This document shows, in pieces, positions 11,005-63,907 of a stretch of 64,000 nucleotides of DNA (its first letter is position 1; every line of letters starts with the position of its first letter). The DNA lies in contig CM043793.1 of the NCBI GenBank assembly GCA_023974075.1, positions 6,543,628-6,607,627 on the forward strand, in the 5' to 3' direction. The notes beneath the pieces were generated by a model, which did no database searches, had not been told where the DNA came from, and saw only the letters and a program-made list of their open reading frames with translations. The position numbers were made by a program, and so were the translations under genes. Source of the DNA: Chaenocephalus aceratus. Taxonomy: Eukaryota; Chordata; Actinopteri; Perciformes; Channichthyidae.

Positions 11005-11631
11005 TTCATCATTCAGATCATCTCCGCTGGTGAAAATAATGAGGATGAAATCTCCAGATTTCTTGCCAAAACATTTCTTGATCAGTTCCACTGAGTCTTT
11101 TTCCTCTTGTGTAATTTCGGCCGATCTGCAGCACAGTTGTGTGTAAGAACACATGAGGTCCAGGAGACAACATGCTGATGCATTTCACAAGCTCGTCTTG
11201 AACATAATCATTGGATAGTGTTGTGTCAAACCAACCGGGGGTGTCTAGCACAGCGACAGGTCGTCCATCAATCTCTCCTGTGCTTTTTTGCATAACTTTT
11301 GTCGCTGAATTTGTGCTGGCAGTAGATGTAAAATGTTTTTTTTGCCCAAAATGGTGTTTCCAGTTGCACTCTTCCCACTGCCTGTCTTCCCAATCAGCAC
11401 CATCCTGACACACTCTCTGTTCTGACTTTCATCAACTTTTTCATCGACTTTTCTTTTAACATCCTGCAGTTCAGCTTAAGTCTTTTGTTAGTGTTATAAA
11501 CTCTACAAACCTTCGTCATATGAGCCTTGGTGAACATCTTCATTGTGAAGCACCTGGATCTTCCGACTCTGGTCTCTCCCACAGCATCCAACAGCTCTGG
11601 GATCTGCTGCCGGTCCTTGATGTTGAGAACA
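11005..11631 (-). pseudogene. GIMAP8-like pseudogene: end of one AIG1 domain and most of the next
   Basis: Read on the - strand, the block begins with LNIKDRQQIPELLDAVGETR, the end of a first AIG1 domain, then a linker. A second domain follows with the P-loop [20 protein letters not shown] (G1), a conserved [13 protein letters not shown] (G3 region; the usual family residue at W is L or F) and [10 protein letters not shown] run of seven A after the P-loop shifts the frame. A second shift follows PHVF, after which [20 protein letters not shown] and [17 protein letters not shown] are found in another frame. Two AIG1 domains in tandem point to a GIMAP8-like gene. It is clearly non-functional. 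Confidence 0.88.
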
Positions 11632-11633
11632 AA

Positions 11634-14199
11634 CAACCCAGTCTCACAAAAAAAATGTGTAATAACTACGTTGTGTCCACAACTTGGGACGTAGTATTTC
11701 CTACAAAAACGCCTCTGAAAATTGTAAGATCCCTACGTCATTTGATGCGAGAAATATGAGTTGTTATTTCATATTATGTGTGCAGTGGATGTACATGATC
11801 TTTAGTTTGCTAGTTATTACGAAGATTACTTCAGGAAATTGTGTCCATTCAACGTTTTCATTGTTACCAAGGTGGTTGCTAGGGAAGCTGGTATCGATAT
11901 TATTTCTGTTATGTTGTGTAACTGTTTAATGGTGTTATCTTTATTGCTACCTCCTTCCCCGTCAATGTATAGTGTTAGTCCACAGCGCAAACGTATTAGT
12001 TTAACAAAATCCGCATCTAGAATTGTGGCATAGATACGTTATTTCCCCCTGTGCAATTCCAGTCTCACATCTCACATCACATCGTCATAAACAAATACCG
12101 GAAACAGACCGAAAACATTTAAAAAAAATAAAATAATACTTTATTCCGAGTGTGCTTGCTTTTCTCTTTGAAAGTCATCACATAACGGCATTGTAATACA
12201 CGGTTCGGCTGCATTAAATATTACATATCTGCCGTAGTTCTCTATTTATAGAGCCCTGATGAGAAGACTTCTAGACAAACAGGAGGAACTGCCGCCAAAA
12301 CTGAAAACATGACGTGGATCATAAATATATCAGCCATTAAACAACATCTTACATTTCTTTTCACACAATACGTCTCCTTGTAGTATCAACACTAATTCGG
12401 CTGACTTTTATATTTGATCCAGTTGGTAGATAGGCTGTATTTACACCATAAAGGTACATAGCTGATATAAAGGGACACCTAGTGGTTAAAGCATGTTATT
12501 GAATTTCATTATTTTTATTGTTAGATATTAATAGGATCCCTATAAAGTATATTCATTACTCGTTATTCTCTACTAATAGTTAATTAAAGACTATCAATAT
12601 GTGTGTAGACCTCCAGCAATGTTAACTATGTTGAAGCACTTATTTTAACTGATATTATACATATGTATTATACTCTTATAAGATGTATGTAGATAGTATA
12701 AGAAATGTGCAGAATATGACAGTTTAATGGTGGAGGTATACACACATATTGATAGATGTCTTGTAATGCACTGTTGAGGAACCTGCGACCCAAGTTTTTC
12801 ATCTCCGGCCTTGTCAGGTATTGAATACAATAAATAAAGAACACAGAATTATTAAATATAAAACACAGAATTTGTGTGATTATACTAAATGATTTACAAA
12901 TAAACACCACTGCATATTTACAACTGTTCCACATGCTGATGTAACGCAAATGTTTCCAACTTGGGATCAATAAAGTATATCTTATCTTAAGATGATCGAT
13001 GGCTACTGCCATATTTGCACAATGTGCCTCTGAACCTTGACAAGTGCATGTTTCAGGCTCATCAATGAACAACAGGAGGGGTCACAAACATAAGACCAGC
13101 TGTTAAATAAAGCTCTTCTGACCTTAGCTGTCGTGTGGGTATATATTAATGCTGCCCATTATGGGCACAAGCAATTTTCACCCATTTATTAATTATATGT
13201 TTTAAATGTGAGTGTTTCCTATCCCCTAAACCTCCAGGGATGTACACAGTTTAATACTGGCCACTTCTTATTATGGGAAATACGAAAACATCTTTTAAAA
13301 CTACAATTCCCAGTAGAGACGTGCCATAGAGAACATGTTGCGAAACAGAATAGCCAGCATGTGTAGTTCTGGGGACGGGGTGGGGGAGGGGGGGACGGGG
13401 TGGACCCGTTCAAATCCAGTTTTGGACAGTCTGCCGTGGTTCCATCCCATTTCAAGTGCTGTTCGACACTCGGCGTAACCCTCGGAGCACACTCAAACAT
13501 CCAATCACAGAGCTTGAGGACTATCACGGGGTTTGTCAAGCGAAGCGGAGAGAATACTTACTTCCGGGTGTAATATTCTCTAAAGCAATGAGCTGCTCCG
13601 ACCCTCGGTCCTGACGGACTCCAACTTGTGTTTATTAATCAAACAAATAAATAAACACAAGGATAATTATGTGTTATTGTTGAGTAAATGGAGAATTGCA
13701 CAGCGGAAAATAACGTATCTATGCCACAATTTTAGATGCGGATTTTGTTAAACTAATACGTTTGCGCTGTGGACCAACACTATAAATTGACCAGTTACAC
13801 AACATAACAGAAATAATATCGATAGCAGTGTCCCTAGTATGCTAGGGATGCTAGGGACACTGCAACCACCTTGGTAACAATGACAATGTTGAATGGACAC
13901 AATTTCCTGAAGTAATCTTCGTAATAACTAGCAAACTGCACACATAATCTGAAATAACAACTCATATTTCTCGCATCAAATTACATCAAAATTGTAATGG
14001 CCAAACTAACCACCGAGAATAAAACAAATGTCGGCCATGTTTTTTTTTTCTGCAGGGAGAAATTTGAAGATCACGTGACAGACGCCAGCCATTGGAATGA
14101 ATGGTGAAAAAAAACGGGATCTCACAATTTCAGAGGCGTTTTTGTAGAAATACTACGTCCCAAGTTGTGGACCAACGTTTTTTTTGTGAGACTGGGTTG
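11634..14199. mobile_element. Element A: 2.57 kb palindromic (foldback) transposon inside GIMAP
   Basis: The left end CAACCCAGTCTCACAAAAAA is the exact reverse complement of the right end. The inverted arms continue, with small indels, for about 400-500 bp each (about 11634-12060 and 13690-14199). They share ACTACGT, ACAAAAACGCCTCTGA, TTAGTTTGCTAGTTATTACG and TAGTTTAACAAAATCCGCAT. The host sequence on both sides is GIMAP coding sequence: GGRHVV lies to the right and LNIKDR to the left. The flanks share GAACAA, consistent with a duplicated, slightly diverged 8-bp target. No intact frame is present. The core (about 12060-13690) recurs in pieces in the element at 58435-63900. Confidence 0.85.
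12950..12996 (+). repeat. LINE 3'-tail remnant
   Basis: The string CCAACTTGGGATCAATAAAG followed by TATATCTTATCTTA matches the general form of fish Rex/CR1-type LINE tails, a pre-tail then a short tandem repeat. It lies inside element A and is not shared with element B. Confidence 0.5.
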
Positions 14200-14207
14200 G
14201 AACAACA

Positions 14208-14422: not shown

Positions 14423-16969
14423 CAGTGGCGGTTCTAGACCAATTTGACTGGGGGGGCCACTGGGGGGCCAGTTATTTTCTGAGGGGGGCACAATAAATGC
14501 AGGACGAAAAAGAGAACTAGACAGTATGAAGTAATTGCGCAAAAACAATGCAATACAGTTATTGGTATTTGTTTCAGTACACTTATTTATTTCAGATTAT
14601 CTTATAGTTATTACTGTTAGCTTCAGCTTAAGTTATAGTACAATTGTTGCACTAACACCATATAATATTTATATAAAAATAAAGGCAATGAACAGTTACA
14701 TCTCTACTTTACATAAGGGTGTCTGCATCCCAGGCTGTAGTTTCCTTCCCAAAATCTCACATTACAGCAACAAAATCCTGCGGTTTTTGGCAAACCGATC
14801 AACAAGTTTACGCAACAAGAGTACCAGAAAATATACATTTTTAAATCCACAGAAAATGATTTAATGTAAAAGTCTACACATCTTAAATGTTGACTTTAAA
14901 TGAAATAAAATACATGGATATAGATAGAAAACATAGATTTCAGATGTATTTTTCCCATAAGCACAGACACGTAGGCTATTTAACAAACATGAAGACTGAA
15001 TACAGAATGCACACCTGTTCTGCATGCGCACTAATCAGTTTCGTCTAATCCGTCACATTTCTAATAAATGTAAAACAGTGATATCTGGAAAACACACAGA
15101 TTTATATAAAAATAAAGGCAATGAACAGTTACATCTCTACTTTACATAAGGATGTCTGCATCCCAGGCTGTAGTTTCCTTCCCAAAATGTCACATTACAG
15201 CAACAACATCCTGCGGTCTTTGTGATTTTTGGCAAACCGATCAACAAATAAGTCAAGATTCAAAGCCTTTGACCTCCTTGACTCAATACTAAGCAGACCC
15301 AGATTGCTCAGTCTCTCATCAGTTATGGTGGATCTGAGAAAAGTTTTGACCAGCTTCAATGTAGAAAAACTACGCTCACAGGAAGCAGAACTGACTGGGA
15401 TTGCGACAGCTATTTTGCAGAGTCTGAAGAGCTCAAAAAACACTTCTTTATAAGGCTCAATGAACTGAACAAGCTCCACTGTAATATCAGGTCTCTGCAT
15501 CCCAGTCTTTATTTTCCTATCTAACATTCTGCTGAACTGATGTAGCTCATGCCCCAAGTCCTCAATATTTGCATCATACAACTGAGCAAATGAAAACAGA
15601 GTTGTCTCCTTCAGAAATACATCACTTTTGGGGTTAAGAGCTTGGATGCTATTCATCATGTCACAGTTTGTGTTTGAAAACCGTCTATTAAGCTCACTGA
15701 GCATCTGATCAATGACAGGGTAGAAAAAGGCTGTACGAAACCCGTGTTTATCTTGTTCTGTCTCTCTCTGTCCAACAGTAGGCAGTACGAAGCTTTCAGC
15801 AAGTTTAGAGCTCAGTCGTTTTTGTCGTTTTGCTGCTGTATTGCAGTATCACATTGCTCAGAGATGTTCAACACTTCATCCCACAAGTTATCAAAAAATG
15901 ACTCCTGCCTGAAGTCATTCAATGTCTGAACTAAATATCCAACTAAATCCACAGCCTTTGAAAGGTCAAGGGATGAAGACTGTAACATGTCAGAGAGAAA
16001 TGTTGTTTCTGCAAACACTTTACGGAGTGTTACAAGATGCACGATGAATTATAGATCCAACTGTGCCAGCAGACCACGTGCCTCAATAGATCTCTCACCA
16101 TTGCGTTCTTGGGCTATGTCTTGCAGTACTCGCTTGAGGGCCGGTAATCTATCCATAATGTTACGGAGAGATATAAATCTGCATGCCCATCTAGTGTCAC
16201 TCAATCGCTGGAGTTCTCTTGGGGCACCTTCGTACATCTCTCTTTGGATATCTAGCCATTTGGGGTGGACATACGACCCAGATGTGAAGACCTATAGCTT
16301 TTCTAGTAAGGAGAAGAACTGCTCTGCTTCTGGGACAGCTTTGACTCTCTGCTGACTCAAAATGGAGAAAACTCTCCTGGATAGCACCATTGAAGTAGTA
16401 CCTGACTACAAGAGAAATCTGTTCTTTTTTAACATCTTTTGTTTCATCTGCCATGATGCTAAAGACTTCACTGTTTTTCACTTCCTCTGTTATTTCAGAT
16501 CGAACCATGTCTGCAAGACAACCCAGAACTTCATTCTGAATGGTTTTGCTTGTGTACTTTGCATTATGAATGGAAGTTAACCTTTTTTTAACAGCTTTGT
16601 CATGATTAGCAATTGTCTCTAGAATGGTCATGAAGTTCCCTTTATTATCTGAGCCTGCAGAACCAGTGTGTCCTCTTTGAGCAATGTTTTGTGTCACAGA
16701 AAGCACTTCGGCTATGGTTTTTATATATTCCCGATTTTCTTGAACCAGTTTCTTATGTTCTTTGTTAAGTACATTTGCCAATGTTGCATTAGATGTCACA
16801 GCTCTCTGGTAGTCTTTCCATGCCATCATTGCATGCGTGTACCGCTCAGATTTGGCATGGATTGCAAATCCCCCCTCTTTGTATGTTGACAGTTTTTGAA
16901 ACCTGAAGGTGAATCAAATACAGTGTCTGTGCTATTCGGAGGGCTAAAATGTCTGCAGGCGTAACATTA

Positions 16970-26860: not shown

Positions 26861-29800
26861 ATGCGGCCTCATCAAACCAAGATGGAGGTCACACCTTGTC
26901 CCATCACCGTATTAGACCGCCCCACCTCAACACTTCCAGCCTCAGATCCAGGCTCTGTCTTCAGCTCCAGACCTCAGTCCAGTCTACTTCCAGTCCCATC
27001 TCTAGCTCAAACCCCATCTGCTCCCACACTGAACCCTTATCCTGCCCTCGTCACCCCCCCATCGAGCCAGGTCTCAGTCATCACCTTGTCCCCAGACCTC
27101 CGCCCGTCCCCTCTCCGACCGCAGTGCTCCGAGGAGAGCTGCCCGGACCTGGAGTGCTCCATCTGCTTCAGCCAGTTCAACAACGTCTTCCGCTGTCCCA
27201 AGATGCTTCAGTGCAAGCACACGTTCTGCCTAGAGTGCCTGGCGCGCATGAACGTCAAGTCTGCTGATCCCAACGCCATCCAGTGCCCGCTGTGCCGAGG
27301 CTTCACCCCCCTCCCCAGCCTGGGCCTGCCCCGGCTGGCCACCAACTCTGACATGCTGTCCTACCTGCCGGCCGCCATGCAGCGAGTGTACAGCATCCGC
27401 TTCGTGCGCAACAAAGGGAAGCTGCAGGTCAAAAGGTAACAATATATAGCTTTTTTTTAAAGAAATGCCATTTAAACAATTCAACAACATGCTGCCTGTG
27501 TTTCTCACTTTTAAAGCTTTTTCTAAAAGCTTCATATTTATGGGTCTCAGGCAGGGGCGGACTGGCCATCGGGACGTTCGGGACGAATCCCGATGGGCCG
27601 GGTACTGAAGTGGGCCGGTCGGACGATGTGGGCCGGCCGGTAACCGGCAGGGCTCGACATTAAATGGCCCGCTGGCCCGGAAGCTCTATTTAGACACCCC
27701 GGGCCAGCATAACATACTTTCCACTTGCCCGCTCGGGCCACTAAAAATATTGCTTTAAAAAAAAAAATTGTCCTGTGGTATTGGTATTTTGACTAGCAAT
27801 TTAGTTAAATTGTTTCGTTTATAAACGCTACAACATAGCGTTCCGTGAGTCGGTTGTCGTTGTTGTTGGGTGAAAAGCAAACAGCTGTTTGCTGCGGAGC
27901 GCAGCGGGAGCAGGCTCCCTTGAGCGGGAGCGCGCTCCTTCACTACAGACTATCGCGCCACCTGACCATTCGCCAAATGTTTTTAATACCAGCCGTAACC
28001 GGCCAAGCGCCGGGCAAAAAACAATCTTCAAATAAAAGACAGTCACCGGAGGAGTTAAAGGAGAGTGACAGGGAGTATGAGAAGAAGAGGGAGAGTAAGT
28101 TTCAGCCTGCTTGATGGAGTTGGCTGCAGTGACGCGTCCTAAAACCCTTTTATAATCTATCGATTAGATTTATGATTCGAAAATGATAAAGTAGGGTAGA
28201 CATGTGGAGATTATCCGGCTGAACAAAACGTGCATTTATCAAACAGGTTTGTTTTCCACAGACCTTATTTCCAGCTATTTTCCAAAACCCTTGTCGAGGG
28301 AACCAGCAGCTACTTCCTGGTTTCAGGACGCGTCACTGGCTGCACCTCTCAATATGATGCCAATATAAACAAGGTCTTCTGTCGGCTCTGTACATCAATG
28401 CCCACCTATGCTGACAAGTAAGTGAAGAGTAGACAATATAAAGGTATTGGCGAAATGTCCCAGCAGTTTAGGATAATGAAGGTTCAGGTTCTAATCAAAT
28501 CAATTACATAGCCATTACATGTCTAACTCCTAATGACAGGAAGGCAGAACGTACAATACACATAATAATAATAGCAGAAATGTTTTAACAATGACCACAA
28601 TATCATTTTAATAAACCAAATATGAACAATTGAGGGAAATGAGGAAGAACTGATGATTAAAATATTGTAGTACAAGTAGTAAGTTAGTGCATACATTACT
28701 ATTGCAAGAAATGTGTTAATTTTCTTCATTATTAGTCAATTTTTTTTTTTGGACGAATGCTCCGGGCCAGTTATACATTATTTACCCTTAATGTCTACCG
28801 CTAGTAAATTGTCTACCCGTCCGTCCGTCGACAATTTACTAGCGGTATTTACTGGCGGTACCGCGGTGGGCCGGCGGTACCGAAGTGGGCCGGTCGAGAG
28901 TCCCGGGCTGATTTGTAGTCCCAGTCCGCCCCTGGTCTCAGGGTTCTCGGACTAACCTACGACATTTTAAAACTACATTGAAAATGTAATGAATTTATTT
29001 CTTTGGTATTGCTGCTTTTTATCTTTTCATTTATGGGATGTTGGTTAAAATTAATATGCAATGTAAATTGATTGCAATATTATCAATTGAATACCATTTT
29101 TTTGCCCAATGTGCCAGTTTTTTACCTAAAAAATACAAATGTATTTTTAATACTACATTTCTATTTTTGTGTGTTTTTATTCGATTGATAATATTGCAAT
29201 CAATATGTTTGTTCAATGAAACACATTCATTCGATTTATCATTCTCTAACTGATTGTTGTTGTCGTGTCGATTTGACTCGTACAAACAACAAATCTCAAA
29301 GTCATATGTCCGCCGAGTTGCCAGAGAAAATCCTAAGAGGCTCTATTGTGCGGTTTTCCCTTTCCTGTAGTGTGCTCTATAGGTTTTTTAAAATCCCAAA
29401 GTTCCCTCCAGAGGTGAAAAGCACAGGCAGTATGAGAAGGGAAAAAAAACAGCCTTTTTAAAAATATGAAAGCATGGAGACGGGCACAGTCGAGGCACTT
29501 AATACAAATATAAAGCTGAAAAAGAGCATTATCAGGTCCCTTTTTTAAATCAACCATAACAATGTTAGTTTATAATTACAGAACAAATGGCTCCAGCAGT
29601 GAAAGATCATTGCTTGATCAATAACGCTCTGTGTTTCTCATTAAGGTCGACTGAAGGTCACCTGCGCTGGGGTCGCGGGTCACTGAACCGCTCACTTGAC
29701 GTGGGGCTTCCCAGCCCACCTGTCAGGGGCCGCTCAGAGGTGCCCGGCCTGGGCGGAGCTCTGTTCCGACTGACGGGCCGGCCCGTGTGCCGAGCCTTCC

Positions 29801-42353: not shown

Positions 42354-44482
42354 CAGTGGCGTTTCTATATGTACAAAAGTGGTGGGGCACAACACACTTA
42401 GATGTCTATATATAAGCTTCTGCAGTGAGGTTCATGGCTGTGAGGCACTGGCACTGACTCTTCAGGTTTACAAATATTATATTTTGACCTAAATCAAAAT
42501 ATAATATTATTTTCAAAAGCTTTTTTTGTCTGATGCTTCAATTAATTTTAAACAGACAGTTCAACAGAAGGATACCCACAACATGTAATTTTATCATTTA
42601 AATATTGAATTGTTCTCTCTTAGTAAGATCCCATTTTCAATAACATGGCGGTCTTACCTTGACTTGAAGATTAAGTCAATTTGCCTATCCTTCTGGACAA
42701 AAATCGCTATTACATTTTTGTAAAAGTCCTCCTTATGTTCTTGTAGTTTCAAAAGTCTATCATAAATCTAATCTAATCAATAGATTTATGATTCGAAAAT
42801 TATAAAAGTAGAGTAGACATGTGGATATTATCCGGCTGAACAAAACGTTCATTTATCGAACAGGTTTGTTTCCCACAGACCTTACAGTATTTGGAGCTAT
42901 TTTCTAAAATGCTATGGAGAAATATCATTGCTTTTTTTGTCGAGGGAAGCCATGCGCAGCTTACTTCCGGGTTTTAGGACGCCTCACTGCAGCTCTCTCG
43001 TCTCCTCTTCACACACCACTTTTCGCGGCACACGTACTTACAGCCAATCAGCTCTGAATGATGTGAGATGACGTATGGTGGGGATGGCAGCACTATGCTC
43101 CTCGGGTCATTATTTTTTTGCCACACACATTAAATAGGAAAATATTCTGAGCATGCGCAGTGTAGTTTTTACAGTCACCATTGACTTAGACAGTAATGCC
43201 CCTTTCACACCAGCGCCTTTTCAGCTCCGGCTCGGAGCTGGAGCCTGAAAAGCGCCGGGTTTTCCTGTTCACACCGCAGCGGCGCCGGCTCTTAGTTCCG
43301 GAATCCGCTTCATTTCCAGCTCCACAAAATTGTCGGTCCAGAGGCAAGAGCTTTGGAGCTAAGAGGTGACGTTGCTTCCGTCTCTCTTACGTCGAGGCGT
43401 GCAGGAAACTAAACCCACCTCCCTGAACATGGGTCGACTGTCATGCCTGCCTACAAGCAGTAGTGCCTATAAACACACTTTATAAAGTCAGGCAACACTA
43501 ACCAGGCTTCGTGTGATTCTGTTTATTTGTACCTTACTTTGACCATCCGTTCACTGTTATCGATCATTGTGGAGAGAGGCAGACGTGTTGTTTTGTATTA
43601 TTGCAGCTATCGGATGCAAGTAGTCAGTTTAGCTTCGGTTGCTATGCCAACATCACCCGTTTTATACCAGAGAAACTTTCATAACAGCGTTGTGATACCA
43701 AACAGCGTCAATTCAGACTGACACACATTCACTTAGGCTAAGGGGAGCTGGGGATATGCATCAGCTGCTTGTGTGAGTCGGACAGTGAATACTTTAGAGC
43801 GGCCGCTGCAGTGCGAGCTAACCGGGAGCTAACGGGAGAATAAACTCCCGTGGAAGAGCAGCCAATACTGCAGCGGTCGGTAAATGCTGCAGAAACACAT
43901 TAATAAACAATGAACCACGGCACTCTGGAGCAAAGCATAAGGTTGGAGAAGTCGTTATTCAATTTATTCTGGCTTCGTGTGATTAAAAGCAACACGATCA
44001 TCGACCCGACGCAGTTGTTGTTGTTGTTGTTGTGAGCGCTGTAATGGCTGCCGTTGGGGAGCAAATCAGCGATGTAAAGGGTGACGTCATGACGCAGCAA
44101 GGGCAGCTCTGGGGCGCCAGTGGGCGGTGTGAACAGAGCGGGAGCTGAAAAGGGAAACCGGAGCTGAACCAGAAAAGCTCCCGCTCGGAGCTAGAAACTG
44201 AAAAGCGCTGGTGTGAAAGCCGCATAAGAGGGAGGGGCAGGATCGGGTTTTGTCCCACATGGCTCTAAACAGCTCAATAGGCACACTGTAGACACTAATT
44301 AGAAGAACACAGACTAAAACAGCAATGTACAGACGAATCAGATGATTAAACATGATCTTAAAATATATTTAATATATTTTTTAATTCATTTTTTGCATTT
44401 TTTTGTAATCATTATTTGTAATACTTTCTGCTGACACTAGGTGGGGCTGTGCCCACCTGCCCCTAATGACCAGTCACCACTG
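42354..44482. mobile_element. hAT element with 8-bp duplication, carrying nested insertions
   Basis: The left end CAGTGGCGTTTCTATATG and right end GACCAGTCACCACTG are hAT-like termini. AATGTTAG occurs at 42346-42353 and 44483-44490. The 2129-bp span contains a Harbinger-type MITE (43197-44224) and a segment (about 42765-42990) matching the hAT copies at 27552 and 58755. No transposase was recognised. Confidence 0.85.
43197..44224. mobile_element. Harbinger-type MITE nested in a hAT element
   Basis: The ends TGCCCCTTTCACACCAGCGC and GCGCTGGTGTGAAAGCCGCA are inverted repeats that extend through CTTTTCAGCTCC/GAGCTAGAAACTGAAAAG. TAA flanks both sides (43194-43196 and 44225-44227). A (GTT)n tract is at about 44010-44032. 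No coding frame. Confidence 0.82.
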
Positions 44483-57876: not shown

Positions 57877-58434
57877 AGTTATATTTTTCTCCTTCTTTTA
57901 TATTTTCTGCCTTTTTTTTGGGTAACAACCGCTTTTTAATCCTTCTTTCAAGTCGTTTAAAAAAAAGAAAAGAGAATTCAAAGAAAAATAAACAATGAGA
58001 AACTAACATCACACTGTTGCTAGGAAATGCCGCATTCTGCTCGGAAACTGCTTAGAAGGTTGTACTCTTTTCAAAAATAAACTAACCATCCAAGCATTTC
58101 AAAAGTAATTCAACATAATATTAAGAATAATTCCCATTGTCGCAAGCCTACGGAGACTCCTCGGAAAGTTTTACTCTTTTCAAAAGTAAAGTAAGGAAAA
58201 TCACAAATATGCAGACATAACTCAAATTGGTTTTGAGTGAGTTTCTTGCAACACAATGAGATTTTCTTTCTAGCCCTGACTAAATAAAAATATTGATTTT
58301 CTCTTAGTGTTAGCTCAAGCCCCAAGCAGTAAGTGAGATACAAAGTTTCATTTTTTATTTTAGCTATGTACTCATGGCAGACAGTTGTCTCGTTGCAGCA
58401 GGCTAAACAGCAAGGTTCTTTGTTTGTCCACATG
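57877..58434. promoter_or_regulatory. Upstream region of the coiled-coil gene
   Basis: This is the interval between the start codon and the large foldback element. It contains a repeated motif, GGAAAGTTTTACTCTTTTCA at 58156 and GGTTGTACTCTTTTCAAAAA at 58058. GTTGCTAGGAAATGCCGC at about 58016 contains GTTGCTAGGAAA, close to a half-to-full X-box (RFX site), the usual promoter element of ciliary genes. This is inference from the motif alone. Confidence 0.35.
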
Positions 58435-58500
58435 CAACCCTGTCTCCTAAAAATTACGTTCCCACAGAACTAAACTGCATTCTCAATTACGTTTAGCTAG

Positions 58501-58754
58501 AAACGTATTTTCTCCCACGTTACGTTAGTTATGAACGTATCTCAAATACGTTTATTTTCTACATATCTTCTAGAAACGTATTTTCTCCCACGTTACGTTT
58601 GTTATGAACGTATCTCAAATACGTTTATTTTCTACATATCTTCTAGAAACGTATTTTCTCCCACGTTACGTTTATTATGAACGTATCTCAAATACGTTTA
58701 TTTTCTACATATCTTCTAGAAGCATATTTTCTTCCACGTTACGTTAGTTATGAA
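58501..58754. repeat. 73-bp tandem repeat in the left arm of element B
   Basis: Units start at 58501, 58574, 58647 and 58720, each AAACGTATTTTCTCCCACGT, then TACGTT and ATGAACGTATCTCAAATACG, then TTTATTTTCTACATATCTTC. The last is cut by the hAT insertion and resumes at 60098. The right arm has only about two units (63690-63835). Confidence 0.9.
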
Positions 58755-60097
58755 CAGGGGCGGACTGGCCATCGGGACGTTCGGGACGAATCCCGATGGG
58801 CCGGTACTGAAGTGGGCCGGTCGGACGATGTGGGCCGGCCGGTAACCGGCAGGGCTCGACATTAAATGGCCCGCTGGCTCGGAAGCACTAGACACCCCGG
58901 GCCAGCATAACGTACTTTCCACTAGCCCGCTCGGGCCACTAAAAATATTGCTTTAAAAAATGGTCCTGTGGTATTGGTATCTTGTGGTATTTAGTTAAAT
59001 GGTTTCGTTTATTGACGCTAAAACACAGCGTTCCGTGAGTCGGTTGTCGTTGTTGGGTGAAAAGCAAACAGCTGTTTGCTGCGGAGCGCAGCGCGCTGCT
59101 TCACTACAGACTCTCGCGCCACCTAACCATTTGCCAACATGTTTTTAATACCAGCGGTAACCGGCCAAACGCCGGGAAAAAAACAATCTTCAAATAAAAG
59201 AAAGTCACCGGAGGAGCTAAAGGAGAGTGACGGGGAGAGGAGAAGAAGAGGGAGAGGAGGTTCCAGCTGGATGGATGGAGTTGGCTTCTCGTGGTGCAGT
59301 GACACGTCCTAAAACCCTTTATAATCTATCATTAGATTTATGATCAGAACATTATAAAAGTAGGGCAGACATGTGGAGATTATCCGGCTGAACAAAACGT
59401 GCATCTATCAAACAGGTTTGTTTTCCACAGACCTTGTTTCCAGCTATTTTCCAAAACCCTTGTGGAGAAATGCTCTCTGTGGAGGGAGCCAGCAGCTACT
59501 TCCTGGTTTTAGGACGCGTCACTGCACCTCTCAATACGATGCCCATATAAACAAGGTCTTCTGTCGGCTCTGTGCATCAATGCGACCTCTGCTGACAAGT
59601 AAGTGAAGAGTAGACAATATAAAGGTATTGGCGAAACGTCCCAGCAGTTTAGGAGAATGAAGGTTCTAATCAAATCAATTACATAGCCATCACATGTCTA
59701 ACTCCTGATGACAGGAAGGCAGAAAGTATACAAATAATAATAATAGCAGACATTTTTTAACAATGACCACAATATCATTATTTTAATAAACCAAATATGA
59801 ACAATTGAGGAAAATGAGGAAGAACTGATGATTCAAATGTTGTAGTAAAGTAGTAATGTAGTTAGTGCATACTAACTATTGCAACAAATGTGTTAATTTT
59901 CTTCATTATTAGTCGATTTTTTTTTTTTGGACGAAAGCTCCGGGCCCGGTAGACATTATTTACCCTTAATGTCTACCGCTAGTAAATTGTCTACCCCCCC
60001 CGGTCGACAATGTACTTGCGGTACCGCGGTGGGCCGGCGGTACCGAAGTGGGCCGGTCGAGAGTCCCGGGCTGATTTGTAGTCCCAGTCCGCCCCTG
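58755..60097. mobile_element. hAT element, copy 2, inside element B
   Basis: Same family as 27552-28934, with ends CAGGGGCGGACTGGCC and CCAGTCCGCCCCTG, and the two copies are nearly collinear. GTTATGAA occurs at 58747-58754 and 60098-60105, so removal restores the interrupted 73-bp repeat unit exactly. The 1343-bp interior carries the same short zinc-finger-like and basic frames (for example TSQYDAHINKVFCRLC). Confidence 0.92.
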
Positions 60098-60317
60098 GTT
60101 ATGAATGTAACTTAAATACGTTTATTTTCTACATACCTTTGCCATTTATTGTCTTGCTTATAATAATGATAATAGTCATTTATAAATATCATTTTAGAGC
60201 ACACCTTTGAAATCGACAATCGGGCTCGATATATGGTTAAATTAAAATCAGTAGGCGAGGCTGTAATTTCGCCAGGTGTTACTCTCATGAGCGAGGCAGA
60301 ACATAATAGTTTTAACA

Positions 60318-60443
60318 TGCCAAAAAGCTGCTGTGTCGTTTATTGCACCTCAAACATTAAAACAAATCCAGAGTTACGTGTTTCTGTACTTCCTCTAAGA
60401 AGAAAGGACAGTAACAGAAGAGCTCTGTGGCTTCAGGCTTGAT
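60318..60443 (+). pseudogene. THAP-type zinc-finger fragment, left arm of element B
   Basis: The ATG frame reads MPKSCCVVYCTSNIKTNPEL, then RVSVLPLRRKDSNRRALWLQ and A before TGA. The N-terminal MPKxC, C-x2-4-C spacing, a hydrophobic-LP turn and a W near residue 38 are THAP hallmarks. The second half of the domain (C-x2-H and AVPTIF box) is missing, so it is a truncated exon 1 copy. THAP domains occur in P-element-type and some Kolobok transposases. Confidence 0.7.
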
Positions 60444-63396
60444 CGCCGTTCAAATGACAGCGCTGGTTTCCCCAAAAGTGGGCGGGGCTGTAAAGTGAAG
60501 TAGATTTTACTGTCATCTATTATTCAAAACCATTCTATTTATTCTAACGTATTACATGCCAGTGTTTTATCTTTTATTTATTTGTTTTTATTTTAAATCG
60601 TATAATGTCGGACTTTTTTTCCGTCTGTGAGGAAAAGAAATGGGGCTCAGAGCCTCAAAATACTGAAATCTGTATTTTTTTAAATCTTTTCCTTCTAATT
60701 TATTATTCTTTTCTAAATAACACACTGTTATTTACTCAACAATAACACACAATTATCCTTGTTTTTATTTATTCATTTAATTCTATAATCTTGGGCTTTT
60801 TAGCCGTAAATAAAGTCACCGGAAACAGACGGGACATTTTGAGCGATACACACCACAAACCCACTAAACTGATTACCCAAGATCCTCAGCTTGAAGCTTG
60901 TTGATTGGATGTTTTAGTCGCAATGCACGCTGGGATATGGTGTTGATATGATATGGAGATATGATATCCGACAACGAAAAATAAAATAATACCTAATTCA
61001 GAGTGTGCTTGCTTTTCTCTTTGGAAGTCATCACATAACGGCATTGTAATACACGGTTCGGCTGCATTAAATATTACACATCTGCCGTAATTCTTTATTT
61101 ATAGAGAGAGACAAACAGGAGAACTGCTGCCAAAACTGAATACTTGACGTGGATCATAAATATATCAACAATTAAACAACATCATCAATTTCTTTTCACA
61201 AAATACGTCTCCTTGCAGTATCAATAGTAATTCGGCTGACTTTTATATTTGATCCAATTGGTATATAGGTTATATTTACACCATAACGGTGCACAGCTGA
61301 TAGAAAAGGACTTGTAGTTTTTAAAGATATTACTGATTTTCTTTGAATATAAGAATCTAAATACTGAGTTGAGAGAATAGTCAGGGGATTTGGGTGATGG
61401 GAGACACATCTATGGAATCACAATTTCAATAGCTTACTATTAAATGACGGATAGCCTATGCCTTTCTGTCTGTGATGTTTTACAAATCAGATATTAATGT
61501 GTAGAAGTAAAACAAGAGAAATAGTATAGCAATATCCTGTAAAATTATGTAAAAACATGAATAAAACTACACATCTTCAGATGTTATACATAAGTGTCTA
61601 CACTAATAATACAAAGTTATTATTAGTATGCTGTGTGTACCTTGTGTGCACCGCCTAGTGGTTAAAGCATGTTATTGAATTATTTTTGTTGAATAATCTT
61701 ATTTGATCAAAACAATATTAAGAGTACATACTTTCATAGGGGGAAAGTAGAAGGTCAATGATAGAAATATAGAATATAAAAAGTCAAGAAGATATTAAGT
61801 GATCTCTACAATAAAACAGTTTAGTGCTGGATGTACAAAGATATTAATAGGAGGATGTGCAAAACAGAAAAACGAATTAACCTTTATTAACACATTCAAA
61901 AATACTTTAGGTTAAGGTCTTCTTTTAAACAAGAAAAAAGCTCTGGGGGTATCTATCTACAGATGAATATTAAGCCTGACAAAGTACTTAACGTCTAAAA
62001 TATTGCTTTCCTGCAATGTTAACTATGTTGAAACACTTATTTTAACTGATATTATACACATTAATTATACTCTTATGTATGTAGATAGAATAAGAAATGT
62101 GCAGAATATGACAGTTTAATGGTGGAGGTATACAGTACACACATATTGATAGATGTCTTGTAATGCACTGTTGAGGAACCTGCGACCCAAGTTGTGTATA
62201 AGATCAATACACCTTAGAAAACCTTGAAATCTTGAAAGGGATATGCAAAATAGCCATTATACAGTTTTTAATTAACTATTAGTAGAGAATAACGAGTAAT
62301 GAATATACTTTATAAAGATCTGCAGATAAATGTTTAGTCTTCTCAAGCACCAACTATCAAATATCTCTCCTGATTGTTGGCACTTGACAATCACCTTCCC
62401 TGAATTGTATTCAGGTGTAACTAAAGTCTGCTTTAAGGGTTGTTTATATTCCACATCATTAATCAGAATCTGCAAAGTAACTAAACTAAATGTAATGGAG
62501 TAAAAATACCAGGTTAACCTCTGAATTGTAGTGGAGTAGAATAACAAAGTAACAATGAGCTGTCGTGTGGGTATATATTAATGCTGCCCATTATGGATAC
62601 AAGCGATTTTCACCCATTTAGTAATTACATGTTTTAAATGTGTACACACCAATGTGTTTCCTATCGCCTAAACCTCCAGGGCTGTACACAGTTTAATACT
62701 GTCAACTTCTACATTTGGGAAAAACGTCTTTTAAAACTACAATTCCCAGTAGAGACGTGCCATAGAGAACATGTTGCGAAACACAATAGCCAGCATGTGT
62801 AGTTCTGGTGGGGCGTTCGAGTCCAGTTTTGAATAGTCTGCCGTGGTTTCGTTCCATTTGAAAGAGCTTGGCGCTCGGCGTAACCTTGGCGCAACATCAC
62901 GGGGTTTGTCAACGGGACTGTAGTCACAAACGATAGCTGGGGATTATGGGTAGTGTAGTGTCTTGGCCCCTCCTAAATCTCGAAATGTCCCGTCTGTTTC
63001 TGGTGACTTTATTTACGGCTAAAAAGCATGCTAAAATGCCCAAGATTATAGAATTAAACGAATAAATAAAAACAAGGATAATTGTGTGCTATTGTTGAGT
63101 AAATAACAGTGTGTTATTTAGAAAAGAATAACAAATTAGAAGGAAGAGATTTTAAAAAATACAGATTTCAGTATTTTGAATCTCTAAACCCCATTTCTTT
63201 TCCTCAAAGACGACAAACAAAGTCCGACATTATACGATTTAAAATAAAAACAAATAAATAAAAAGATAAAACACTGGCATGTAATACGTTAGAATAAATA
63301 GAATGGTTTTGAATAATAGATGACAGTAAAATCTACATCACTTTACAGCCCCGCCCACTTTTGGGGAAACCAACGCTGTCATTTGAACGGCGATCA

Positions 63397-63522
63397 AGCC
63401 TGAAGCCACAGAGCTCTTCTGTTACTGTCCTTTCTTCTTAGAGGAAGTACAGAAACCCGTAACTCTGGATTTGTTTTAATGTTTGAGGTACAATGAACGA
63501 CACATTAGCTTTTTGGCATGTT
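63397..63522 (-). pseudogene. THAP-type zinc-finger fragment, right arm of element B
   Basis: This is the mirror copy of 60318-60443 on the - strand. MPKS is followed by a stop codon in place of the first cysteine, then CVVHCTSNIKTNPELRVSVL and the same remainder to WLQA. The premature stop shows that this copy is not translated as a finger. Confidence 0.7.
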
Positions 63523-63907
63523 AAAACTATTATGTTCTGCCTCGCACATGAGAGTAACAGCTGGAGAAATTACAGCCTCGCCTACTGATTTTAATTTAAC
63601 CATATATCGAGCCCGATTGTCGATTTCAAAGGTGTGCTCTAAAATGATATTTATAAATGACTATTATCATTATTATAAGCAAGACAATAAATGGCAAAGA
63701 TATGTAGAAAATAAACGTATTTAAGATACGTTCATAAGGAACATAACCTGGGAGAAAACATGTTTCTAGAAGATATGTAGAAAATAAACGTATTTGAGAT
63801 ACGTTCATAACTAACGTTGGGAGTAAATACGTTTCTAGCTAAACGTAATTGAGAATGCAGTTTAGTTCTGTGGGAACGTAATTTTTAGGAGACAGGTTTG
63901 CCACATG

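What the first reader, a model, noticed from the sequence alone, without database searches (positions are those of the whole stretch)
58435..63900. Large THAP-fragment foldback element with mirror-image gene fragments in its arms
A 5.5 kb unit has inverted terminal repeats, likely target duplication CCACATG, long mirror arms (about 0.9-1.1 kb without the nested hAT), and a THAP zinc-finger exon fragment in each arm. Foldback elements whose arms contain a captured DNA-binding exon of a P-element-like transposase are unusual. The transposase binding domain may have become part of the termini, so an RNA from it would form a very long hairpin.
Basis: partly seen in the sequence, partly recalled or inferred. 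Interest (0 to 1): 0.75.

Follow-up and report, generated by a model that had tools for sequence, protein, structure and literature searches.

The report
Fish foldback transposon with THAP-fragment arms
This is one copy of a recently multiplied, non-coding jumping DNA in what appears to be a fish genome; its two mirror-image arms each carry a broken piece of what looks like the DNA-binding part of a mobilising enzyme, and it is probably a vertebrate counterpart of fruit-fly Galileo/P elements.

Summary
Window 58435-63900 is a foldback DNA transposon: ends CAACCCTGTCTCC/CAAACCTGTCTCC, exact 7-bp target duplication CCACATG, arms of 1.06 and 0.92 kb (94-95% identical once a nested hAT at 58755-60097 is set aside), a 2.1-kb non-coding core, and the N-terminal half of a THAP-like domain in each arm. 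The left tip matched 39 other places in the same genome at 93-100% (40 of 2554 candidates scored). Of 24 copies read, 19 show both arms. In 16 loci with both ends inspected, 13 duplications are 7 bp, two 8, one none. Twelve full copies, drawn from the best-matching loci and so biased to young ones, differ by 0.64% on average: the unit spread recently, as a foldback. The THAP match is weak (21.9 bits after bridging a frameshift; cut-off 23.9), and the frame ends at 41 codons or fewer in 35 of 36 arms read, so it is no working binding domain. A second element (11634-14199) shares the core but has different arms. Anatomy fits the P superfamily, especially Galileo, where transposase sequence inside the arms is already in print. 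No transposase was found; the genome search that could settle membership did not complete. New variant of a known kind; hairpin silencing is possible but untested.

The parts
58428..58434 (+). left target-site duplication CCACATG
   Evidence: the same 7 bases at 63901-63907
58435..60843 (+). left arm (terminal inverted repeat), 1.06 kb once the nested hAT is set aside
58497..58755 (+). tandem 73-bp repeats near the left tip, each with several ACGT motifs; 19 ACGT in the first 320 bp against 4.7 in shuffles
58747..58754 (+). left target duplication GTTATGAA of the nested hAT
   Evidence: the same 8 bases at 60098-60105
58755..60097 (.). nested non-autonomous hAT-like element (hAT judged from its ends and 8-bp duplication), not part of the foldback
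   Evidence: related sequence at 27552-28936; absent from the 12 uninterrupted full copies
60317..60439 (+). THAP-like N-terminal half in the left arm (41 codons, then stop), inside ORF 60176-60439
60844..62978 (.). non-coding core between the arms; pieces 79-92% identical, and one inverted 58-bp piece 95% identical, to the core of the second element
62979..63900 (-). right arm, 0.92 kb
63398..63520 (-). THAP-like N-terminal half in the right arm, with an early stop in this copy (MPKS, stop) and the same later stop
63901..63907 (+). right target-site duplication CCACATG
11634..14199 (.). second, related foldback element: ends CAACCCAGTCTCAC...GTGAGACTGGGTTG, arms 11634-12059 and 13693-14199, core shared in part with the first; inserted in a GIMAP (AIG1 family) coding frame
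11627..11633 (+). target duplication GAACAAA of the second element (right copy GAACAAC at 14200-14206, 6 of 7 identical)

Best explanation
A non-autonomous DNA transposon family with long inverted arms, most likely of the P superfamily and closest in anatomy to Galileo, in what is taken to be a teleost genome. Inferred origin: an ancestral element had its 5' end (tip, ACGT-rich tandem repeats, first THAP exon of its transposase) copied in inverted orientation over its 3' end, so that a piece of the transposase gene became part of both terminal repeats, and the transposase body was lost. Shown: the two-armed unit is what multiplied, by insertion with 7-bp target duplications, recently. Inferred: a transposase encoded elsewhere binds the ACGT motifs at both tips, cuts at CAACCC.../...GGGTTG and inserts with a 7-bp stagger; the THAP pieces are passengers.
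For: Same unit at many places: 39 distinct other places at 93-100% to the left tip, with 40 of 2554 first-look candidates scored. 17 of 20 loci and 2 of 4 more have both arms. Duplications, 16 loci examined: 12 have exactly 7 bp by script, 2 have 8, 1 (L024, in an AT repeat) has none, and L021, whose right end the script missed, has 7 by eye; L029 and the window copy add two of 7 bp. Twelve uninterrupted full copies of the 20 fetched (4036-4252 bp) differ pairwise by 0.64% on average, range 0.22-1.78%. In 15 copies left arms differ among themselves by 0.8%, right arms by 0.7%, left from right by 3.6% both within and between copies: the arms parted before the burst. Leaving out the second element and one duplication copy gives a continuous 120-codon frame that matches AIG1 positions 117-205 at 22.4 bits, cut-off 27, where the frame at 11018-11428 matched 23-117. 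THAP-like match in both arms and four homologous ORFs at 79-88% identity. The family end agrees with the zebrafish P element Pdre2 (CATACCTGTCAAC, PMC10983969) at 9 of 13 positions; 3486 of 200000 shuffles that keep the first two bases do as well. ACGT is more frequent in the tips than in shuffles and not in the cores.
Against: No transposase was linked to these ends; the search of the genome for a P-type catalytic domain did not complete. The THAP match stays below Pfam's cut-off, the four homologous ORFs gave no THAP match at E<=1, no PDB chain matched by sequence at E<=10, and a long-query search for full-length relatives gave nothing. The second element's end agrees with Pdre2 at only 7 of 13 and the medaka P element Izanagi's end with this family's at 5 of 13. 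CAACC departs in its last base from the P terminal consensus YARNG quoted in PMC2820524. Galileo's target consensus GTANTAC matches none of the duplications. ACGT counts in a tip made of tandem repeats are not independent, those of the second element only equal or fall below the best of 300 shuffles, and an 8-kb flank is also somewhat above its shuffles (20 against 12.6).
Confidence: 0.66

Rival explanations
1. A long-armed transposon of another superfamily that makes 7-bp duplications picked up a THAP exon from a host gene or from another transposon, so the THAP piece says nothing about its transposase.
For: No transposase was identified. The THAP match is weak.
Against: The piece lies just inside the tip with its start codon nearest the tip, where the first exon of a P-type transposase gene would sit; the duplication length is Galileo-like (PMC4168063).
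Confidence: 0.2
2. A THAP-bearing transposon of a different known superfamily (ISL2EU, Kolobok) or the 6-7-bp-duplication superfamily Dada.
For: ISL2EU transposases can carry THAP (PMC4482050, passages). Dada makes 6-7-bp duplications and occurs in fish (PMC3706591, passages).
Against: ISL2EU duplicates AT and usually begins with GG; here it is 7 bp and CA. Dada elements with clear ends sit in small-RNA genes and the U6 and U1 families lack terminal inverted repeats; here the duplications differ from locus to locus and the repeats are long. Kolobok duplicates TTAA (recalled).
Confidence: 0.04
3. The THAP resemblance is chance, and the element is simply an unclassified foldback transposon.
For: Below the gathering cut-off even after bridging the frameshift; homologous ORFs do not hit THAP; only half of the domain is present.
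Against: THAP is the only family out of 24736 reported for either peptide at E<=1, with E 0.00031 for the left arm; the start Met-Pro, the first two cysteines at C-x4-C spacing, the following Pro and the Trp lie where THAP has them (motif recalled). Four database ORFs keep the frame at 79-88% identity, though they may be further copies of the same family.
Confidence: 0.12

Closest known systems
Galileo (P superfamily, Drosophila)
   Same: Long, internally repetitive inverted arms (0.5-1.2 kb), 7-bp (rarely 8-bp) duplications, two-arm copies without transposase, subfamilies with different arms, recruitment of internal sequence into the arms; in D. willistoni copy 147 transposase segments form part of the arms (PMC4168063: passages and section 6; PMC3573991: passages; PMC3688188: parts 1-3 of 6).
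   Different: Host taken to be a fish; ends CAACCC; the arm carries the THAP end of the gene; no transposase seen; target consensus GTANTAC not met.
Pdre2 / THAP9-type P elements of zebrafish
   Same: 13-bp ends CATACCTGTCAAC, 9 of 13 identical in register to this family (PMC10983969: passages and section 9).
   Different: Short ends, 8-bp duplications, full-length gene.
Izanagi, non-autonomous P element of medaka
   Same: Fish element without transposase that keeps degenerate THAP exons (PMC2820524: passages).
   Different: 27-bp ends (5 of 13 positions shared with this family), 8-bp duplication, 1.3 kb, not described as a foldback in the passages seen.
Mu killer (maize)
   Same: Inverted duplication of a terminal repeat plus part of the transposase gene, proposed to give a hairpin RNA (PMC3440606: start of abstract in a search listing).
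   Different: A derivative of MuDR in a plant; here a multicopy family that itself transposes, with no RNA evidence.
Foldback (FB) and Tetris elements of Drosophila
   Same: Long arms (Tetris, PMC4079207: title and start of abstract in a search listing only; FB and its tandem repeats recalled or as mentioned in PMC3688188).
   Different: No THAP piece known to me in their arms (recalled).

Membership tests
Foldback-type DNA transposon | long inverted arms making up much of the element, moved as a unit with target duplications | tested here: met
P superfamily | 7- or 8-bp target-site duplications | tested here: met
   15 of 16 loci (L021 by eye); window copy; L029
P superfamily | THAP domain at the transposase N-terminus | tested here: inconclusive
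   N-terminal half only, 21.9 bits against a cut-off of 23.9; homologous ORFs no hit
P superfamily | P-type RNase H transposase (PF21787, name recalled) in an autonomous partner | not tested
   the request did not complete (first, last)
P superfamily | terminal sequence like other P elements | tested here: inconclusive
   9 of 13 with Pdre2, about 1.7% of shuffles do as well; second element 7 of 13; Izanagi 5 of 13; CAACC misses the last base of YARNG
Galileo | 0.5-1.2 kb internally repetitive arms | tested here: met
   arms 0.92-1.06 kb with 73-bp tandem repeats
Galileo | target consensus GTANTAC | tested here: not met
   none of the duplications or 79 matches it
Galileo | Galileo transposase | not tested
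   no transposase sequence obtained
ISL2EU | 2-bp AT duplication, GG ends | tested here: not met
   definition from PMC4482050
Dada | insertion in small-RNA genes | tested here: not met
   duplications differ from locus to locus; second element sits in a protein-coding frame. The flanks were not searched for RNA genes.
Kolobok | TTAA duplication (recalled) | tested here: not met
Mu killer-like silencer | hairpin transcript and small RNAs against the autonomous element | not testable with these tools
   no RNA data

The most novel reading that the evidence does not exclude
A mobile, multicopy vertebrate counterpart of maize Mu killer: because each copy is an inverted repeat of the tip plus the first transposase exon, read-through transcripts would fold into hairpins of about 0.9 kb per arm and make small RNAs against its own transposase gene, so that the burst both used and then silenced the P-type transposase of this fish.
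Probability: 0.07. Interest if true: 0.75.

Novelty: new variant of a known kind. Interest (0 to 1): 0.42.

Why it matters
Copies only 0.64% apart on average (in a sample that favours young ones) imply that a transposase recognising these ends was active recently in this lineage. If it is P-type, that is a long-armed, 7-bp-duplicating branch of the P superfamily outside Drosophila, which my five paper searches on the theme did not turn up. It also adds a case, after Galileo, of transposase sequence becoming part of the terminal repeats, with enough nearly identical copies to study how such arms form, and a silencing idea that small-RNA data could test directly.

Tried and rejected
Rejected: assembly artefact or single odd locus (many copies with distinct duplications). 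Arms kept alike by ongoing gene conversion: first suspected, but one search shows left and right arms as distinct lineages in 15 copies, so conversion need not be invoked; the right-type states in the window's left arm may be ancestral. Working THAP domain: frames broken. Autonomous copy among the fetched loci: ORFs of at least 90 codons in the interruptions of L014, L015, L022, L024 and L025, of at least 85 in L030 and at least 100 in part of L031 were read by eye; only the two large L015 ORFs were given to Pfam, and they match a piggyBac-type transposase (DDE_Tnp_1_7) and DUF4371. Nothing looked P-like, but this is not a systematic search. Viral contigs: 6 stretches matched a pattern, none was a relative. 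Full-length protein relatives: none. PDB sequence match: none. The P-type catalytic domain (PF21787) in the own genome was asked repeatedly, and two further DNA queries and; none was answered. Of all genome-search requests only the one was answered (searches were the same request, unanswered). Of the 60 diagnostic columns, those beyond the arm edge are not meaningful; one search replaces it. Changed on checking: the confidence of the best explanation went from 0.70 to 0.66, because and the YARNG consensus turned the terminal-sequence test from met to inconclusive.
Full report
What is there. Window 58435-63900 begins CAACCCTGTCTCC and ends GGAGACAGGTTTG, between two copies of CCACATG. After setting aside a nested hAT-like element at 58755-60097 (duplication GTTATGAA; related sequence at 27552-28936), the left arm is 1058 bp and the right 922 bp; they pair at 94.6% over 759 bp and 93.8% over 209 bp. 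The left tip has 73-bp tandem repeats (three copies in register), the right tip fewer. Between the arms lies a 2135-bp core whose longest stop-to-stop frame is 101 codons.

THAP piece. The left arm has an 88-codon ORF, 60176-60439, whose last 41 codons read MPKSCCVVYCTSNIKTNPELRVSVLPLRRKDSNRRALWLQA and match Pfam THAP positions 1-36 at 15.4 bits, E 0.033. Bridging one frameshift raises this to 21.9 bits, E 0.00031 (left arm); the right arm, with an early stop also set to X, gives 17.4 bits, E 0.0076; the cut-off is 23.9. The second half of the zinc site is missing. Four database ORFs from contigs of 518-1289 bases are 79-88% identical, and three of them start with a longer N-terminal stretch; none hit THAP at E<=1. 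The PDB sequence search gave no hit. I read it as a decayed first exon of a THAP-type transposase, probable but not proven.

Copies. The genome search was answered once: 42 rows, of which one is the window itself and two are second rows of the same copies, leaving 39 other places at 93-100% identity to the left tip; 40 of 2554 candidates were scored, so this is a lower bound. The 20 best-scoring were fetched: 17 have both arms in the 10-kb stretch, 3 do not. Four more were fetched: 2 have both arms, L031 is interrupted, and L030 is a rearranged relative. The remaining 15 of the 39 were not fetched. Duplications: 16 loci were examined; 15 had both ends found by script, of which 12 show exactly 7 bp, 2 show 8, 1 none; L021, missed by the script, shows TCACATC by eye. 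L015, L022, L026 and L027, without a readable right end, were not examined. L029 shows CCATGAC. They share no consensus that I could see.

Age and unit of spread. Twelve uninterrupted full copies differ pairwise by 0.64% on average (0.22-1.78%); the window copy differs from them by 1.1-1.8%. The other 8 of the 20 loci were left out as interrupted or incomplete, and the 20 were themselves the best matches, so this sample favours young copies. In the inner arm, 15 copies with both arms give left-left 0.82%, right-right 0.68%, left-right 3.61% within a copy and 3.60% between copies, with 30 diagnostic positions. The window copy was set aside for that count; L015, L020, L021, L022 and L027 contributed one arm only and L026 and L028 none. 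So the foldback was formed once, its arms diverged, and the finished unit multiplied. Of 36 arms whose THAP frame was read (18 left, 18 right, window included), 35 end at 41 codons or fewer; L014 left is shifted and reads 59 codons without the end of the domain. A further stop before the Trp marks 12 of the 18 left arms and 1 of the 18 right arms.

A second element. Window 11634-14199 has ends CAACCCAGTCTCAC/GTGAGACTGGGTTG, duplication GAACAAA/GAACAAC, arms at 73-83%, and a core with pieces 79-92% identical to the first core plus one inverted 58-bp piece at 95%. It sits in a GIMAP-type gene: leaving out the element and one duplication copy gives a continuous 120-codon frame that matches AIG1 positions 117-205 at 22.4 bits, below the cut-off of 27, while the frame at 11018-11428 matches positions 23-117 at 60.6 bits. 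Its arms are otherwise different; I noticed no THAP piece there but did not test for one. Related sequence also lies inside L014 and L015. Shared core with different arms recalls the subfamilies and chimeric copies described for Galileo (PMC3573991, passages).

How it probably works. Shown: insertion with 7-bp duplications, recent spread of a two-armed unit, no long reading frame in the core. ACGT occurs 19 times in the left tip (320 bp; shuffles 4.7, maximum of 300 was 11), 8 times in 200 bp of the right tip (shuffles 1.6, maximum 5), 6 and 5 times in the two arms of the second element (shuffles 1.7 and 1.8, maximum 6 in both), 5 and 3 times in the cores (shuffles 4.6 and 3.9), and 20 times in 8 kb of flank (shuffles 12.6, maximum 23). 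The tips are tandem repeats, so their counts are not independent. Inferred: these are binding sites for the transposase, as THAP sites lie in the tandem repeats of Galileo arms (PMC3688188, parts 1-3 read); the Galileo motif itself was not compared. Inferred: an inverted duplication of the 5' end made the foldback. For Galileo, arm extension by recruiting internal sequence (PMC3573991, passages) and transposase segments inside arms (PMC4168063, section 6, copy 147) are in print, so the anatomy has a precedent.

Membership. Duplication length fits the P superfamily; THAP and the terminal sequence are inconclusive (9 of 13 with Pdre2, reached by 3486 of 200000 shuffles, but 7 of 13 for the second element and 5 of 13 between this family and Izanagi; last base of YARNG missed); the catalytic domain is untested because the search did not complete (and repeats). 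For Galileo proper, the target consensus is not met and the transposase is untested, so I say Galileo-like, not Galileo. ISL2EU, Kolobok and Dada do not fit.

Novelty. Paper searches for Galileo/foldback/P superfamily/THAP with or without teleost terms listed no fish foldback of this kind by title or abstract; repeat libraries such as Repbase were not available, so the family may be catalogued there. The most novel reading is a Mu killer-like self-silencing hairpin, resting on anatomy alone (for the maize case, start of abstract only).

Noticed in passing
window 60844-62978: The core carries ACTACAATTCCCAG (found in 16 of 20 fetched loci on the oriented strand, and ACTACAATTCCC in the second element's core) and GGGATTATGGGTAGTG (17 of 20 loci, not in the second core), which resemble the ZNF143/THAP11 promoter motif (name recalled); this could mark a promoter inside the element.
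   Followed up: partly
window 11018-11428 and 11634-14199: A related foldback element interrupts a GIMAP (AIG1 family) coding frame.
   Followed up: partly
window 27552-28936 and 42769-42997: Further sequence related to the hAT-like element nested in the left arm.
   Followed up: no
L031, about 2.2-6.2 kb from the start in element orientation: A Gypsy-like retrotransposon with a 1353-codon open frame sits inside one foldback copy; name judged by eye.
   Followed up: no
L015 3614-6228: ORFs matching a piggyBac-type transposase (DDE_Tnp_1_7, 264 bits) and DUF4371 of hAT-like elements (82 bits) sit inside another foldback copy.
   Followed up: partly
L028 201-2363 and L030 101-6979 (element orientation): Rearranged relatives with the same tip: one a short 2.2-kb foldback, one with core pieces inverted and spread over more than 6 kb.
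   Followed up: partly
window 15195-16913: hAT transposase remains on the minus strand (Dimer_Tnp_hAT, DUF4371).
   Followed up: no
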